Position numbers and translations under genes: made by a program | Assembly: GCF_000424625.1 (NCBI RefSeq) | Contig: NZ_AUKG01000004.1 | Span: 310,001 to 374,000 of the forward strand | Length of the DNA stretch: 64,000 nt | Origin: Conexibacter woesei Iso977N | GTDB lineage: Bacteria > Actinomycetota > Thermoleophilia > Solirubrobacterales > Solirubrobacteraceae | Reading direction: 5' to 3' | Shown: piece after piece, positions 5,972-14,534 of the stretch | Layout: each line of letters begins with the position of its first letter | Numbering within the stretch: the stretch's first letter is position 1 | The notes under the pieces: model-generated | Database searches by the model: none | Told to the model about the DNA's origin: nothing | What the model saw: only the letters and a program-made list of their open reading frames with translations

Positions 5972-6020
5972 CCGCGCGATTGCGAGGCGGGACTGCCGTC
6001 GCGGACATGACGGCCGCGCG

Positions 6021-6067
6021 GTCAACGGTGCATTTGGGTTCGTATAGGACCAAAATGCACCGTTGAC
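6021..6067. repeat. 47-bp imperfect palindrome, AT-richer than surroundings
   Basis: GTCAACGGTGCATTT (6021-6035) is matched exactly by its reverse complement at 6053-6067. After one mismatch the pairing continues for about five more base pairs around a small loop (about 6042-6046). It sits 50 bases after the stop of the flippase-like gene. There is no T run as in a normal intrinsic terminator. It could be a terminator, a protein-binding site or a mobile palindromic element; the sequence alone does not decide. Confidence 0.75.
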
Positions 6068-6203
6068 GGAAGTTGACGAACACGCGCGGCGCGGCGCGGC
6101 GACCATCACCACCCGGAGGCCCGCAGCAGCGAGCCGATGGCCGCGGACGCGGCCGCTCGCCGCACCGCTGCGCTGCGTTGCCGCGTGTGCCGAGAGGCGA
6201 CGC

Positions 6204-6566
6204 CGGCGGAGACCGGCAAACGGTCGCGGTGTTACGACCGACGACGCATCGGTACACCCAGCGATCACGCCGGCGGAAGTGTGGCCGCGGACACGACCGG
6301 TCGCGCTGCCGCGACGCTTCGAGCCGCGGGTACCGAGGACGGCGGAGACCGGCAAACGGTCGCGGTGTCACGACCGACAACGCATCGGTACACCCAGCGA
6401 TCACGCCGGCGGAAGTGTGGCCGCGGACACGACCGGTCGCGCTGCCGCGACGCTTCGAGCCGCGGGTACCGAGGACGGCGGAGACCGGCAAACGGTCGCG
6501 GTGTCACGACCGACAACGCATCGGTACACCCAGCGATCGCGCAGGCGGAAGTGTGGCCGCGGACGT
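6204..6566. repeat. Tandem repeat, 136-bp unit, about 2.7 copies
   Basis: Units start at 6204, 6340 and 6476 with CGGCGGAGACCGGCAAACGG and are nearly identical: copies 1 and 2 differ at only a few positions, and copy 3 matches to about 6566 and then diverges. The array lies in the 698-bp space between the convergent flippase-like gene and trpB. No credible gene is seen here on either strand; long open frames across it show no protein-like pattern. A 15-base stretch of the unit, ACCGGTCGCGCTGCC, recurs in the spacer at 38756-38770. Confidence 0.9.
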
Positions 6567-6669
6567 GACGCCCGCAGCACCACCGCGCTCCGATACCGCG
6601 TGTGCCGAGAGGCGACGGGTGGCGAGAGGTGGCGGCTGCGCCGTCGAGAGGCGGTGGTTGCGCCGGCGG

Positions 6670-7847
<1,178 letters not shown>

Positions 7848-7851
<4 letters not shown>

Positions 7852-8600
7852 GCCGCGGGCCGGACCGGCGAGCGACGGCCCGCGGGCGTAGATGTAGGAC
7901 TCGGCCTGTCGTCGTCGTGCCGCGGGCGCGCGGGCTCCGAGCCGGCCGGCCAGGTCGACTTCACGGCCTCGGCGAAGGCCTTCATCTTCTCGGGATCCTT
8001 CACGCCCGGCGACGCCTCGACCCCGCTCGCCACGTCGACCGCGAACGGATGCACCGCCGCGATCGCGCTGACGACGTTCTCCGGGTTCAGCCCGCCGCTC
8101 AGGATCAGCGGCACGTTCGACGAGCGCCGCGAGACCATCGCCCAGTCGAACGTCTCCCCCGTCCCGCCGCGCAGCCCGTCGCGGTGGGTGTCGAGCAGGT
8201 GGAAGTCCGTCCGGAACGCCTGGACCGCGACGACGTCGGCCGCCAGCTTGACCGACTGCGCCTTGATCACCTTGCAGCCCGTCCGCCGCGCGATCTCCTT
8301 GGCGTACGAGGGACCCTCGTCGCCGTGCAGCTGGATCATCGACAGCTGCAGCATGTCGGCCAGCGCCGCGACCTCGTCCATCTCCTGGTTGACGACGACG
8401 CCGACGACCTCGACCTTGCGCCGCAGCGCGTTGGAGATCCGGACGCCCTCCGCCGGATCGCACGCGCGCTTGGACCCCGGCCACAGGATCAGCCCGATCG
8501 CCCAGGCGTCGAGCGAGACGGCCAGCTCGGCGTCGGCGAGCGACGTCATGCCACAGAACTTGATGCGCGTGCGGTGCTGCGAGTCGTCCACGCCCACCAT
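7848..8600 (-). CDS. trpF: Phosphoribosylanthranilate isomerase
   Basis: Amadori rearrangement of N-(5'-phosphoribosyl)anthranilate in tryptophan synthesis. 250 residues with the TIM-barrel motifs [15 protein letters not shown] (catalytic Cys near residue 16), QLHGDE, and [12 protein letters not shown] and [16 protein letters not shown] at the phosphate site. The C-terminal 30 residues are a low-complexity Arg/Pro-rich tail beyond the usual end. The ATG at 8598-8600 may not be the true start: a GTG three codons on (8591) lies seven bases after a TAGGAT box, matching the leaderless pattern of this genome. Overlaps trpB by ATGA. Confidence 0.95.
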
Positions 8601-8628
8601 CCTAGGGCGGCGCCGCGCGCGCCCGCGC

Positions 8629-9855
8629 CTAGCCGGTCTGCAGCGCCGACGGGCGCTTGGTCAGCGTGACCGTGACGTCCCTGGTCGAGCCCTTCTGGCG
8701 CACGATCTCGAGCTTGACCCTGTCGCCCGGCCTGTGCGACGACACCAGCTGCGCGAGCTGGTCCGACGTCGTGATCTTCGTCCCGTCGACCTTGGTGATG
8801 ATGTCGCCGCCCAGGACCACCGGGTCGGACGAGCCCTGCATCGTCGCCTGGATCGTCCCGGCCCTCAGCCCGGCCTGGCCGGCCGGCGACCCGGACTCGA
8901 CGGTCTGCACGAGCGCGCCGTGGTTGGCCGCCACGCCGACCGCGTCGAACTGGCCGTCGACGGTGATCGACGTCACGCCGAGGTAGGCGCGCTGCACGGC
9001 CTCGCCGGACTTCAGGCTGGTGAGGATCTGCTTGGCGGTGTCGATCGGGACGGCGAAGCCGATCCCGACGTTGCCCTCCGACCCGCTGCCGCCGGTCTCG
9101 ATCTGCGAGTTGATCCCGATCACGCGCCCGGCCGAGTCGATCAGCGGCCCGCCCGAGTTGCCCGGGTTGATCGCCGCGTCGGTCTGGATGACGTCCTTGA
9201 TCGCGAAGCCGTTGGGCGCCTGGATCTGGCGCTGCAGCGCCGAGACGACGCCGGTCGTCAGCGTGCGGTCGAGGCCGAACGGGTTGCCGATCGCGATCGT
9301 CGGGTCGCCGACCTGCACGTCCCTGGACGAGCCGAGCGGCAGCGGCCTGAGGTCCAGGCCCTCCGGGTCGACCCTCAGCAGCGCCAGGTCGGTCGACGGG
9401 TCCTTGCCGACGACCGTCGCCCTGAGCGTCTTCTTGTCGGCGAACTGGACCGTGATCGAGCCCCTGGTCGCGCCGTCGATGACGTGGTTGTTGGTGAGGA
9501 TGTCGCCGCGCGCGTCGATGACGAACCCGGAGCCGGTCGCCTCGCTCTTCTGCGCGCCGCCGAACCCGAAGTCGAACGGGTTGTTGGTCTGCTCGATGAT
9601 CTCGGACTTGATGTAGACGACGCCGGGCGCGTAGCGCTTGTAGATGTCGGCGGCGGTCAGGCCCTCGGCGACGTTGGACTGCTTGCCGTTGGCGCCGGTG
9701 GCGGCCATCGCGGGCTGGCGGATCACCGTCGTGGTGTGCCCGTCGGAGTCCGAGTTGTTCTCCAACAAGCTCGTCACCCCCGCGGCGACGCCGCCGCCGA
9801 GCAGCGCGGCGACGAGCAGAGGAGCGAAGAGGGCCTTGGAGTTGGAGGTCGGCAT
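8629..9855 (-). CDS. HtrA/DegP-type trypsin-like serine protease with PDZ domain
   Basis: Membrane-anchored or exported quality-control protease. 408 residues: a hydrophobic N-terminal segment (residues 9-30), a linker, a chymotrypsin-fold protease (about 65-290), and a C-terminal PDZ domain (about 290-400). The catalytic triad is intact: His124 in LTNNHVIDGA, Asp156 in PSTDLALLRV and Ser234 in PGNSGGPLID. It sits inside the trp gene run between trpC and trpF but has its own 114-base upstream region containing six helically phased hexamers, so it is probably regulated separately, perhaps by a cell-envelope stress response regulator. No functional tie to tryptophan synthesis is evident. Confidence 0.95.
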   Translation of the reverse strand: MPTSNSKALFAPLLVAALLGGGVAAGVTSLLENNSDSDGHTTTVIRQPAMAATGANGKQSNVAEGLTAADIYKRYAPGVVYIKSEIIEQTNNPFDFGFGGAQKSEATGSGFVIDARGDILTNNHVIDGATRGSITVQFADKKTLRATVVGKDPSTDLALLRVDPEGLDLRPLPLGSSRDVQVGDPTIAIGNPFGLDRTLTTGVVSALQRQIQAPNGFAIKDVIQTDAAINPGNSGGPLIDSAGRVIGINSQIETGGSGSEGNVGIGFAVPIDTAKQILTSLKSGEAVQRAYLGVTSITVDGQFDAVGVAANHGALVQTVESGSPAGQAGLRAGTIQATMQGSSDPVVLGGDIITKVDGTKITTSDQLAQLVSSHRPGDRVKLEIVRQKGSTRDVTVTLTKRPSALQTG

Positions 9856-9861
9856 ACGAGG

Positions 9862-9918
9862 CTGAGGTTCCTGAGGATCGCTGAAGCGACCCTGAAGTCG
9901 GTCTAAAGATTGCTAAAG
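9862..9918 (-). promoter_or_regulatory. Six phased CTRARG hexamers upstream of htrA
   Basis: On the plus strand CTGAGG (9862, 9871), CTGAAG (9881, 9892) and CTAAAG (9903, 9913) follow one another with start-to-start distances of 9, 10, 11, 11 and 10 bases. Read on the gene's strand these are CTTTAG, CTTTAG, CTTCAG, CTTCAG, CCTCAG, CCTCAG. One CTTTAG overlaps a TAGACC that could be the -10 box. Spacing by one helical turn is the hallmark of OmpR/PhoB-type response-regulator arrays; which regulator binds is unknown. Confidence 0.7.
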
Positions 9919-9969
9919 CGCCCGTCGTTGCTGGACGTCCGGCCGGTGCCGTTTGGCCCAGGCGAGCGC

Positions 9970-10776
9970 CTAGAGCGCGTCCTCGCCGCCCCCGCCGTGC
10001 CCGATCAGCTCGCGCAGGGCGGCCTCGGGCTCGGGCGCGCGCATCAGCGTCTCGCCGATCAGGACGGCGTCGACGCCGACCCGCTCGAGCTCCTCGATCT
10101 GCGCCCGCGTGTGGAACCCGGACTCCGAGACCACCGTCTTGCCCGCCGGGACGTCGGAGAGCAGCTCGTAGGTGCGCTCGACGTCGACCGTGAAGTCCAC
10201 GAGGTTGCGGTTGTTGATGCCGATCACGTCGGCGTCGACGACCTCCAGCGCGGTCTCCAGCTCCTCCTCGTCGTGGACCTCGACCAGGATGTCCAGGTCC
10301 AGCCCCTGGGCCTCGGCGTACAGCGACGCCAGCACCTTGGGCTCCAGGGCCGCGACGATCAACAGGATCGCGTCGGCGCCCGCCACCGCGGCCTCGACGA
10401 TCTGGTAGCCGTCGACGACGAAGTCCTTGCGCAGGATCGGCAGCCCGACCGCGCCGCGCGCCTCCTCGAGGTCGGCGAGCGTGCCGCCGAAGTGCGGGCC
10501 CTCGGTCAGGACCGACAGCGCCGCCGCGCCGCCGCGCTCGTAGGCCTGGGCGATCTCGGTGACCGTCGCCCCCTCCCGGATCTCGCCGGCCGAGGGCGAG
10601 CGGCGTTTGTGCTCGGCGATGACCGACACGCCGGGACGAACGAGGGCCTCCGCGAACGGGCGGCCCTCGCGGTGGGGCCCGAGCCGCGCCTCGAGGTCCG
10701 CCAGCGGGACCTCCTTGCGGCGGCGGCGGACTTCGTCACGCGTGACATCGACGATGCGCTCAAGGACGTTGCTCAC
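9970..10776 (-). CDS. trpC: Indole-3-glycerol phosphate synthase
   Basis: Closes the indole ring in tryptophan synthesis. 268 residues, TIM barrel. Family motifs are VIAEHKRRSPSAGEI (catalytic Lys), ALSVLTEGPHFGG, PILRKDFVVDGYQI, the acid in DILVEVHDEEEL, IGINNRNL, and the phosphate loop VSESGFHTRAQI and VLIGETLM. The gene lies between trpD (40 bases upstream) and htrA on the same strand. It encodes TrpC alone; TrpF is separate, as in most actinobacteria. Confidence 0.97.
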   Translation of the reverse strand: MSNVLERIVDVTRDEVRRRRKEVPLADLEARLGPHREGRPFAEALVRPGVSVIAEHKRRSPSAGEIREGATVTEIAQAYERGGAAALSVLTEGPHFGGTLADLEEARGAVGLPILRKDFVVDGYQIVEAAVAGADAILLIVAALEPKVLASLYAEAQGLDLDILVEVHDEEELETALEVVDADVIGINNRNLVDFTVDVERTYELLSDVPAGKTVVSESGFHTRAQIEELERVGVDAVLIGETLMRAPEPEAALRELIGHGGGGEDAL

Positions 10777-10816
10777 TGTTGTTCACGCTTTCGAGCGCGA
10801 CGAAGTCGGGCCTTGC

Positions 10817-11854
10817 TCATGCTGTTGCGGGGGAACGTTCCCTGGTCAGGCGGACGTAGTCCTCCAGCGCCCGTGCCGCGGCGCCCGAGGTGAGGGTCTC
10901 GCGGGCCAGCTCGACGCCCGACTTCAGGTCGTCGGCCGCGCCCGCGGCGTAGATGGCGGCGCCGGCGTTGAGCAGCACCAGGTCGGTGTCAGGGCCCGAA
11001 GCGCCCTCGAAGACGGAGCGCGTGACCGCGGCGTTGACCCCGGGGTCTCCCCCGGAGATCGCGTCCGGCGACGCCTCGGGAAGGCCGACGTCGGCAGGGC
11101 TGACGTCGTAGCGGCGCAGCTCGTCGCCGTTGACCTCGACCACGTGGGTCGGTGCGGACGTGCTCATCTCGTCGAGGCCATCCGCGGAGGAGACTACCAA
11201 CGCGCGATCACAGCCCAGCTGGGCCAGCGCGCCCGCGAGCGCCTCGATGTAGTTGGGGTCGCTGACGCCCACGACCTGGCGGCGCGCGCCGGCCGGGTTG
11301 GTCAGCGGGCCGAGGAAGTTGAAGATCGTCCGGACCGCCAGCTCCTTGCGGACCGGGATCACGAACCGCGTGGCGCTGTGGTGGCGCGGCGCGAACATGA
11401 AGCCGAAGCCGACCTCGTCGATGCACGCGCCGACGTCCTCGGGCGTCAGGTCGATCCGGACGCCCAACGCCTCCAGCACGTCGGCCGAGCCGGACGCGCG
11501 CGTGGCGGAGCGGTTCCCGTGCTTGGCGACCGCACAGCCCGCGCCCGCCGCGACCAGCGCGGCCGTCGTCGAGACGTTGAACGTGTGGCGCCCGCCGCCG
11601 GTCCCGGCGGTGTCGAGCAGGTCCTCGCGCCTGGTCGGGACCCCGACCGCCAGCGCGCGCATCGCGGCCGCGAGGCCCGCGATCTCCGCGACCGTCTCGC
11701 CCTTCGTGCGCAGGGCGATCAGGAACGCCGAGATCTGCACCTCGGAGCCGTTGCCGGCCATGATCTCGGTCAGGACCGCGGCGGTCTGCTCCTGGCTGAG
11801 GTCGCGACGCTCGGCGAGCAGGTCGATGGCGGCCGTGAGGACGTCGTTCTGCAT
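10817..11854 (-). CDS. trpD: Anthranilate phosphoribosyltransferase
   Basis: Transfers phosphoribose from PRPP to anthranilate. 345 residues. The glycine-rich PRPP loop DTAGTGGGRHTFNVSTTAA (about residues 82-100) and the conserved KHGNRSATRASGSADVLEAL are intact, as is the NFLGPLTNPAG segment. Fifteen bases separate it from the end of trpG upstream. Single-function enzyme, not fused to TrpG. Confidence 0.97.
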   Translation of the reverse strand: MQNDVLTAAIDLLAERRDLSQEQTAAVLTEIMAGNGSEVQISAFLIALRTKGETVAEIAGLAAAMRALAVGVPTRREDLLDTAGTGGGRHTFNVSTTAALVAAGAGCAVAKHGNRSATRASGSADVLEALGVRIDLTPEDVGACIDEVGFGFMFAPRHHSATRFVIPVRKELAVRTIFNFLGPLTNPAGARRQVVGVSDPNYIEALAGALAQLGCDRALVVSSADGLDEMSTSAPTHVVEVNGDELRRYDVSPADVGLPEASPDAISGGDPGVNAAVTRSVFEGASGPDTDLVLLNAGAAIYAAGAADDLKSGVELARETLTSGAAARALEDYVRLTRERSPATA

Positions 11855-11869
11855 CGAAGGCGAAACAGC

Positions 11870-12435
<566 letters not shown>

Positions 12436-12439
<4 letters not shown>

Positions 12440-13896
12440 GCCCAGTCCCTCTGCGACGCGGCCACGGCGATGGCGCCCTTGACGGCCTTCGACTTGTTCA
12501 CGGACTCCTCGTACTCGTACTCGGGCTTGGCGTCGGCGACCGTGCCGCCGCCCGCCTGGATGTGCGCGGTGCCGTCCTTGATGACCACCGTGCGGATGTG
12601 GATGCAGGTGTCGAGGTCGCCGGAGTAGCTGAGGTAGCCGATCGCCCCGCCGTAGCCGCCGCGCTTGACGGGCTCCAGCTCGTCGATGATCTCCATCGCC
12701 CGGACCTTCGGCGCACCGCTGAGCGTCCCTGCGGGGAGGATCGAGCGCAGCGCGTCCATCGGCGAGACGTTCGCGCGCAGCGTCCCGGACACCGCCGAGA
12801 CGATGTGCATGACGTGCGAGTACAGCTCGATCGCCTTGAAGCGGTCGACCCTGACGGTCCCGTACTCGCAGACGCGCCCGAGGTCGTTGCGCCCCAGGTC
12901 CACCAACATCACGTGCTCGGAGATCTCCTTCTCGTCGCTGAGGAGCTCCTCGGGATCGGCGTCGCGCGGGCGCGTGCCGGCGATCGGCGTCGTCGACGCG
13001 TGCCGGCCGTGGACGGTCAGCAGCGGCTCCGGCGAGGCGCCCGCGATCTGGAAGTCCAGGAAGTCCAAGAAGTACATGTACGGCGACGGGTTGACGACCC
13101 GCAGCCCGCGGTAGACGCTGAACGGGTCGATCCCGCCGAGGTCGGCGCTCCAGCGCTGCGAGGGCACGACCTGGAACGCGTCGCCCGCGTGGACGTACTC
13201 GACGATCCGGCCGACCATGCCCTCGAACGTCGCGCGGTCCATGTTGGAGGTGAACTCCGGGACCTCGCGCTCGGCGCGCGCGGCGTCCGGCTTGGGCACC
13301 GGTCCGTCGAGCAGCGCGCGGGCGTCGGCGATCCGCTGGACCGCCTCGGCGTACGAGGTGTCGACGTCGCCGGCGCGGACGTTGGCGAGGATCGTGACCG
13401 TGTGCTTGAGGTGGTCGAAGACCACCAGCAGGTCGGACAGCATCAGCGCCATGTCCGGCAGCCCGAGCACGTCCGGGTTGGGCTCGCCGAGCGTCGTCTC
13501 GACGGTCCGGACCAGGTCGTAGCCGAAGAAGCCGACCGCGCCGCCGGTGAACGGCGGGGCGTCCTCGAACGGCGCCTGCCTGTGCGCCGCGGCCTCCTCG
13601 GCCAAGCTGTAGGGGTCGCCGTCGTCGCCCAGCGACCAGCGCACGACGTCGCGCGGCTGGACGCCGATGAACGAGTAGCGCCCGACCCTCTGGCCCTGCT
13701 CGGCGGACTCCAGCAGGAAGGCCGGCGTCTGCTTCTCGGCCCCGCGCAGCTTCAGGAACGCCGAGACCGGCGTCTCGCAGTCGTCGATGAACGTGTGGCG
13801 CAGCGGGACGAGGTCGTGCTCGCGCGCGAGCGTGCGGACCTCCTCCAGCGACGGCGCGACCGCGAGCGCCGCCGCGGCGTCAGCGGGCGCGCTCAT
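12436..13896 (-). CDS. trpE: Anthranilate synthase component I
   Basis: Converts chorismate to anthranilate with ammonia from TrpG. 486 residues. The C-terminal chorismate-binding domain shows [51 protein letters not shown], and the region [22 protein letters not shown] (quoted in parts). An LLES-type tryptophan feedback element is present near residue 60 ([10 protein letters not shown]). The start overlaps the end of hisIE by 17 bases. No leader peptide rich in Trp codons or T-box is seen upstream of the operon. Confidence 0.96.
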
Positions 13897-14482
13897 GCAG
13901 CACCTCCGTGGCGTCCGAGAGGGAGCGATCGCGCGAGCGCAGCAGGACCATCAGGTGGTAGAGGACGTCGGCCGCCTCGTTGTCGACGCGGTCGTCGGTC
14001 TCCTCGCGGGCGGCGCGGGCGACCTCCTCGGCCTCCTCCTGCACCTTCTCGCCGATCAGCGGCGGGTTGTCCAACAACTCGACCGTGTAGGAGCCCTCGG
14101 GCCGCTCGGACTGCCGCGCGCGCAGGACGCGCTCCAGCGCGGGCAGCACCTCGAACGGCGCGGGCGCCATGTCGCCGCGGTAGAAGCAGGTGCGCTCACC
14201 GGTGTGGCACGCCGGGCCGTTCGGGATCACCAGCGCGACGAGCGCGTCGGCGTCGCAGTCGTAGCGCAGGCCCTTGACCTGCTGCGTGTGCCCGGAGGTC
14301 GCGCCCTTGTGCCACAGCTCGTTGCGCGAGCGCGACCACAGGTGGAGCTCGCCGGTCTCGCGCGTCCGCGCGACCGCTTCGGCGTTGGCGTACGCCAAGG
14401 TCAGGACCTCACCGGAGTTCCAGTCCTGGATGACGACGGGCACGAGGCCCTGGGCGTCGTAGTTGATCGCGCTCGGCTCCAT
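13880..14482 (-). CDS. hisIE: Bifunctional phosphoribosyl-AMP cyclohydrolase / phosphoribosyl-ATP pyrophosphatase
   Basis: Second and third steps of histidine synthesis. 200 residues in two domains. The HisI part (about 1-115) has [20 protein letters not shown], the zinc site [11 protein letters not shown] and the [14 protein letters not shown] motif. The HisE part (about 115-200) has the [15 protein letters not shown] and [15 protein letters not shown] acidic helices of the MazG fold. It is the first gene of the trp run: TAGACT ends nine bases before the ATG, so transcription probably starts here with a leaderless message. A histidine gene heading a trp operon links the two pathways that share PRPP. 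Confidence 0.95.
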
Positions 14483-14534
14483 GGGCGCCGGAGTCTACGA
14501 GGCGTTCGGCCGAGTGCCGTCCACAGCGTCTAGC

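What the first reader, a model, noticed from the sequence alone, without database searches (positions are those of the whole stretch)
9862..9918. Six helically phased hexamers in front of an HtrA protease gene inside the trp cluster
CTGAGG, CTGAGG, CTGAAG, CTGAAG, CTAAAG, CTAAAG follow each other every 9-11 bases for 57 bases just upstream of the htrA start. The pairs change stepwise in sequence along the array. Such phasing is typical of response-regulator oligomers, and in actinobacteria HtrA-type proteases are controlled by envelope-stress two-component systems. The extent of six sites is unusual, and it overlaps the likely -10 box and leader, so repression or graded control is possible.
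Basis: partly seen in the sequence, partly recalled or inferred. Interest (0 to 1): 0.65.

Follow-up and report, generated by a model that had tools for sequence, protein, structure and literature searches.

The report
Stress-type regulator sites before htrA
The repeated six-letter words are real and form a conserved control region, probably the landing strip for a stress-sensing regulator that switches on a protein-quality-control protease; it is kept across a whole order of soil bacteria and sits, oddly, inside the tryptophan gene cluster.

Summary
Six CYTYAG hexamers lie exactly where stated and occur nowhere else in the 5.7-Mb genome. Alignment to over 90 htrA promoters of the same order (Solirubrobacterales) shows what matters. 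An array of up to four 11-bp direct repeats (units around TTTAG/TTCA) ends exactly 10 bp before a -10-like box, followed by 6-10 nt and the ATG. There is no -35 box and no room for a normal leader. This is the layout of a promoter activated by an OmpR/PhoB-family response regulator. Trained on 37 loci, the model passes the 1% shuffle threshold in 45 of 56 validation loci. Phasing peaks at 11 and 22 bp upstream. Hexamers 1-4 are the array. Hexamers 5-6 (CCTCAG) lie in the spacer and -10 region, step by 9 bp and are poorly conserved. The best regulator candidate is a PrrA/PhoP-like response regulator with its kinase (G000:C2:1663293-1665430). It is present in nearly all genomes checked, its own promoter carries similar repeats, and in one genus the same array stands directly behind its kinase gene, before a small RNA. 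The regulator's identity is inferred, not shown.

The parts
9913..9918 (-). unit 1 (most distal), CTTTAG
   Evidence: conserved in G001, G002 (as ATTTAG), G004, G005
9903..9908 (-). unit 2, CTTTAG
   Evidence: MTTTAG in G001, G002, G004, G005
9892..9897 (-). unit 3, CTTCAG
   Evidence: conserved in the genus (GTTCAG in G002); order-wide position of the MTTTAG box
9881..9886 (-). unit 4 (proximal), CTTCAG; ends 10 bp before the -10 box
   Evidence: order-wide STTCAN box
9865..9870 (-). predicted -10 box, GAACCT (consensus nAnnnT), 9 nt before the ATG
   Evidence: position fixed by aligned htrA promoters; the same spacing before TATCTT in the small-RNA promoters and TAGAAC in family f2
9871..9876 (-). 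hexamer 5, CCTCAG, inside the 10-bp spacer; weakly conserved
   Evidence: CCTCTG, CCTGAG, GCTCAG, GCTCGG in relatives
9862..9867 (-). hexamer 6, CCTCAG, overlaps the -10 box; weakly conserved
   Evidence: CCTTCG, CCTGAG, CCTCAG, TCTCAG in relatives
8629..9855 (-). htrA: membrane-anchored HtrA-type serine protease, predicted leaderless start
   Evidence: Pfam Trypsin_2 7.8e-39 and PDZ_2 4.2e-15
9970..10776 (-). trpC, immediately upstream gene
   Evidence: trpC-htrA-trpF-trpB order kept in most relatives
7848..8600 (-). trpF, 28 nt downstream of htrA; could be read from the htrA promoter
   Evidence: synteny

Best explanation
The array is the binding site of an OmpR/PhoB-family response regulator at a promoter that lacks a -35 box. 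Regulator dimers, probably phosphorylated, bind head to tail on units 1-4 on one face of the helix. The proximal dimer, ending 10 bp before the -10 box, takes the place of the -35 contact and recruits RNA polymerase. Transcription then starts at or within a few bases of the htrA ATG (leaderless mRNA), giving htrA, and perhaps the downstream trpF-trpB, a stress-responsive promoter inside the trp cluster. The likeliest regulator is the PrrA/PhoP-like response regulator at G000:C2:1663293-1663982 with its kinase, which also seems to control its own gene. Shown here by sequence: array, conservation, spacing, phasing, and repeats before the regulator's own gene. Inferred: binding, activation, leaderless start, stress signal, and which regulator.
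For: Array unique in the genome and kept in G001, G002, G004, G005 of the genus. Order-wide model box-N5-box-N10-nAnnnT-N5..12-start, trained on 37 loci, exceeds the 99% shuffle threshold in 45 of 56 validation loci, where 1% is expected. Spacing is specific: unit gap 5 and spacer 10 give 44 passing loci; neighbouring values give 11-26. Further units peak at 11 and 22 bp upstream of box 1 and at no other offset. The same 4-unit array, N10 and a perfect -10 (TATCTT) recur in genus g33 directly behind a response regulator-kinase operon, before a small hairpin RNA. That regulator is the ortholog of L156 (66-67% identity). L156's own promoter has GTTGAG-N5-GTTGAT-N9-TACCAT, with similar repeats in G001, G002, G006, G023, G064, G100, G054. 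L156 has close orthologs in 48 of 50 genomes. PDB best match Mtb PrrA (1ys6), then PhoP, MtrA, RegX3. HtrA genes are known targets of such systems: MprAB-pepD (PMC3062566), MprAB-htrA in C. glutamicum (PMC12113857), CssRS in Streptomyces (PMC9739842).
Against: No binding or expression data. The L156 autoregulatory sites use TTGA/TTAA rather than TTTAG/TTCAG units and mostly a 9-bp spacer, and some orthologs have no such site or an inverted one. Several lineages (G006, g18, g10, g3) keep the regulator but have no array at htrA. G155 has the array but no close L156 ortholog (88% complete MAG). Other widely kept regulators of the same fold cannot be excluded. The -10 box GAACCT is poor. The architecture was first seen by eye in the training loci; the validation loci are partly clustered by genus, and one of them (G063) had been seen before.
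Confidence: 0.72

Rival explanations
1. The same kind of site and mechanism, but the regulator is another OmpR-family response regulator of the genome, for example L158 (C5:159342), L153 (in an RR-kinase-HtrA operon on C1) or L154 (C4, near a divergent HtrA pair).
For: L158 promoters in G000, G001, G027, G056, G059 and G068 show an 11-bp repeat, 10 bp, -10 and short or no leader. L153 forms an operon with a kinase and an HtrA paralog, like mprAB-pepD. An array of CTTAGG/CTTTGG/CTTGAC units lies between the divergent HtrA pair about 7 kb from L154.
Against: L158 has no close ortholog in G002 and in many other array-bearing genomes (best hits about 56% or less). The L153 promoter has no array. 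The array-plus-small-RNA locus in g33 adjoins the L156 ortholog, not these.
Confidence: 0.35
2. The upstream units activate, while hexamers 5-6 (CCTCAG) form a second site over the -10 box that lets the same or another regulator repress at high concentration (graded control, the first reader's idea).
For: CCTCAG x2 is present in G000; CTCAG or CTGAG pairs occur in G004 and G005.
Against: Step of 9 bp, out of register with the 11-bp units; degenerate in G001 and G002; not seen as a pair outside the genus.
Confidence: 0.12
3. It is mainly an internal promoter of the trp cluster whose purpose is to supply trpF-trpB, with htrA a passenger.
For: trpC-htrA-trpF-trpB is kept across the order and the htrA-trpF gap is only 28 nt.
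Against: Second HtrA copies in genus g45 carry similar arrays of five units away from the listed trp-linked htrA. Lineages that lost the array keep trpC-htrA, mostly with trpF. HtrA is a classical target of such regulators.
Confidence: 0.1
4. A slipped simple repeat or chance array without a bound protein.
For: Direct tandem repeats can arise by slippage.
Against: Units and spacing kept over an order while the spacers vary; unique in the genome; phasing peaks at 11 and 22 bp only.
Confidence: 0.02

Closest known systems
PhoB/PhoP-type promoters (Pho boxes, OmpR/PhoB family)
   Same: About 11-bp direct repeats, proximal unit ending about 10 bp before the -10 box in place of a -35 box, TTNA-type core (comparison from general knowledge of the family)
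   Different: Unit is TTTAG/TTCAG, two to four units, start codon at or next to the predicted start of transcription, target is htrA
MprAB-pepD (M. tuberculosis) and MprAB-htrA (C. glutamicum)
   Same: Actinobacterial OmpR-family system directly controlling an HtrA protease (PMC3062566, PMC12113857). The C. glutamicum MprA motif TKTTAAGAAM resembles one f3 unit, CTTTAAGAAAC
   Different: There the regulator genes adjoin pepD in mycobacteria; here htrA lies in the trp cluster away from the regulator. The own-genus units (CTTTAGCAAT, CTTCAGGGTC) match the MprA motif poorly
CssRS (Streptomyces)
   Same: Two-component system that controls HtrA-family proteases under secretion stress (PMC9739842)
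   Different: Orthology to the candidate here was not tested
PrrA of M. tuberculosis (PDB 1ys6)
   Same: Closest solved relative of the candidate regulator (E 1.1e-61)
   Different: No evidence that PrrA controls htrA or binds such units; no such paper was found in the one search made

Membership tests
OmpR/PhoB-family response-regulator binding site | Direct repeats in helical register (10-11 bp) | tested here: met
   Units 1-4 step 10, 11, 11; order-wide peaks at 11 and 22 bp
OmpR/PhoB-family response-regulator binding site | Repeats placed just upstream of the -10 box, standing in for the -35 box | tested here: met
   Spacer of 10 bp preferred in validation loci; 45 of 56 above the 1% null threshold. 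The -10 box itself is predicted, not mapped
OmpR/PhoB-family response-regulator binding site | Regulator of the family binds the site | not testable with these tools
   Needs footprint or gel shift
OmpR/PhoB-family response-regulator binding site | Regulator gene carries or adjoins the same sites | tested here: inconclusive
   L156 own promoter has 11-bp TTGA repeats in G000 and several relatives, not in all; array beside its kinase gene in g33
MprA regulon | MprA-type binding motif | tested here: inconclusive
   Resemblance by eye of one f3 unit to TKTTAAGAAM only
MprA regulon | HtrA gene adjoining the regulator-kinase operon | tested here: not met
   This htrA is in the trp cluster; a different HtrA paralog adjoins a regulator-kinase operon
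HtrA protease family | Trypsin-like domain followed by PDZ domain | tested here: met
   PF13365 7.8e-39 at residues 108-248, PF13180 4.2e-15 at 291-398
Leader RNA (T-box, riboswitch, other Rfam family) | Match to a known RNA family in the trpC-htrA region | tested here: not met
   No Rfam match with E up to 0.5 in window 6000-14500

The most novel reading that the evidence does not exclude
A PrrA/PhoP-like two-component system of Solirubrobacterales runs an undescribed envelope-stress regulon whose core is a leaderless htrA set inside the trp cluster, plus, in one genus, a small hairpin RNA with a CCCCC loop; tandem arrays of two to five 11-bp units tune the response.
Probability: 0.4. Interest if true: 0.6.

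Novelty: new member of a known kind. Interest (0 to 1): 0.45.

Why it matters
It would give a deep, almost unstudied actinobacterial order a defined and testable stress promoter: unit sequence, spacing, -10 position, start codon and a named candidate regulator. It also shows a stress-type promoter kept inside the tryptophan cluster across an order, which links two unrelated functions in one transcription unit, and it offers a natural series (two to five units) for asking what repeat number does in OmpR-family activation.

Tried and rejected
Chance or slippage: rejected by uniqueness, shuffles and conservation. Six equal sites: rejected, only four are conserved. Regulon search with three-unit and two-unit strict patterns in the genus: nothing beyond htrA except single CTTCAG pairs. 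Family-wide MTTTAG-N5-STTCA: 8 of 19 hits at htrA; the hit before a response regulator in G009 turned out to be its -10 box TAGAGT, not a repeat. L153, the MprAB-PepD-like operon, as regulator: its promoter has no array. L158 as regulator: own promoter fits, but no close ortholog in many array-bearing genomes. RNA leader: no Rfam match. TRAP-like NAG repeats in a trp cluster: considered and dropped, since spacing is 9-11 instead of 2-3 nt and the units fall upstream of the predicted start (reasoning only). The original MprA-box paper (He and Zahrt 2005) was not among the search results; the M. tuberculosis consensus was therefore not compared. Literature on PrrA sites or on Solirubrobacter htrA control: no paper found.

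Full report
What is there. The six hexamers are present at the stated coordinates. Read on the htrA coding strand they run CTTTAG, CTTTAG, CTTCAG, CTTCAG, CCTCAG, CCTCAG towards the ATG at 9855, with steps of 10, 11, 11, 10 and 9 bp. A chain of three such hexamers occurs nowhere else in the 5.7-Mb genome, and the reversed control pattern gave none. In 150 Markov copies of the window the longest chain was two. The gene is an HtrA-type protease with a trypsin-like and a PDZ domain. It stands between trpC and trpF, an order of genes kept in most relatives examined across the order.

Close relatives. The four other genus members with a close trpC-linked htrA and an array (G001, G002, G004, G005) keep units 1-4 nearly letter for letter. 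The CCTCAG pair varies: CCTCTG/CCTTCG in G001 and GCTCGG/TCTCAG in G002. G006 has lost all but one CTTTAG; no close trpC-linked htrA was found in G003, an 81% complete genome. In G005 the array begins 8 nt behind the trpC stop codon, so the promoter elements are probably inside the array and not upstream of it. Two of these genomes match public records titled Conexibacter sp., which places the window in or near that genus.

The order-wide pattern. Laying out other genera showed a common plan: a box like MTTTAG, 5 nt, a box like STTCAN, exactly 10 nt, a box nAnnnT, 6-10 nt, ATG. I then fetched further genomes. A matrix trained on the first 37 loci scored above the 99% quantile of dinucleotide shuffles in 45 of 56 validation loci. 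One of the 56 (G063) had been seen earlier, and the loci are partly clustered by genus, so they are not 56 independent events. Changing the spacer or the gap between boxes lowers the fit sharply: 44 passing loci at spacer 10 and gap 5, 11-26 at the neighbouring values. Hexamers like box 1 recur 11 and 22 bp further upstream and at no other offset. Many promoters therefore have up to four units, for example in family f3 CTTTAGAAAAC CTTTCGACTCG CTTTAGCGCCG CATCAA AGGTTCAAGG CATCCT GACCGGC ATG. In the window this plan makes units 3 and 4 (9892-9897, 9881-9886) the two core boxes, units 1 and 2 the upstream extension, GAACCT at 9865-9870 the -10 box, and the CCTCAG pair mere overlap with the spacer and -10 box.

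Lineages without it. In G006, g18, g10, g3 and g21 the plan is missing at htrA. In several of these the htrA start sits directly at or overlaps the end of trpC, as if htrA had become an ordinary member of the trp operon. This is an inference from gene spacing.

Who binds. The layout is that of OmpR/PhoB-family activators (general knowledge). The genome has about 20 regulators with that DNA-binding domain. A search of f3 genomes with an htrA-derived pattern found a second conserved array in about nine g33 genomes. In the seven loci read, it overlaps or directly follows the 3' end of a histidine-kinase gene, has the same 10-bp spacer and in most a -10 box TATCTT, and precedes a short RNA with a long hairpin and a CCCCC loop (no Rfam match). 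The regulator-kinase pair beside it, read in three genomes, is the ortholog of L156 in the window's genome. Orthologs of L156 with 66-100% identity in the DNA-binding domain occur in 48 of 50 genomes; G026, which lacks one, also lacks the array, whereas G155 lacks one but has the array (only the 77-aa domain was the query). L156's own promoter carries GTTGAG-N5-GTTGAT, 9 bp, TACCAT, and similar sites stand before its orthologs in G001, G002, G006, G023, G064, G100 and G054. Others have an inverted pair or nothing clear. The closest solved structure is M. tuberculosis PrrA.

Rivals for the regulator. L158 has a well-fitting own promoter, but no close ortholog in G002 and many other array-bearing genomes. 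L153 heads a regulator-kinase-HtrA operon, the arrangement of mprAB-pepD (PMC3062566), but has no array in its promoter. L154 lies about 7 kb from a divergent HtrA pair that has its own related phased repeats. I put L156 at about one half and the other regulators together at about one third.

Relation to known systems. Control of HtrA proteases by two-component systems is known in actinobacteria: MprAB-pepD (PMC3062566), MprAB-htrA in C. glutamicum (PMC12113857), CssRS in Streptomyces (PMC9739842). What is new is the site and its conservation in this order, the predicted leaderless start, the position inside the trp cluster and a concrete candidate regulator. I therefore call it a new member of a known kind. 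Binding, activation, signal and leaderless start remain untested.

Noticed in passing
L288-L290, L258, L259, L266-L268, L286, L287 (genus g33): Conserved short RNA, GGACGAGACACA tail plus a strong hairpin with CCCCC loop and U-rich end, behind a response regulator-kinase operon and preceded by the same array and a good -10; no Rfam match.
   Followed up: partly
L174 (G000:C4:150900-152400), L177 in G001: Divergent pair of HtrA-like genes shares an intergenic region with phased CTTAGG/CTTTGG/CTTGAC and CTGGGA repeats; an OmpR-type regulator-kinase pair lies about 7 kb away.
   Followed up: partly
L196 (G000:C1:619000-624500): Regulator-kinase-HtrA operon resembling mprAB-pepD, with an HtrA reading frame close to or overlapping the kinase end; kinase-HtrA junction also seen in G001, G002 and G006.
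   Followed up: partly
L293, L294 (genus g45): Second HtrA copies with five 11-bp units, but placed further from the start codon than in the trp-linked htrA.
   Followed up: no
L301, L311, L313, L316: Orthologs of the candidate regulator whose promoter has the repeat pair in inverted orientation at a near-constant 26-27 bp from the -10 box, hinting at a switched mode of autoregulation.
   Followed up: no
L317-L323: Another response regulator (L158 type) whose own promoter in several genomes has the same layout of 11-bp repeat, 10 bp, -10 and short leader, suggesting this layout may be general for two-component promoters in the order.
   Followed up: partly
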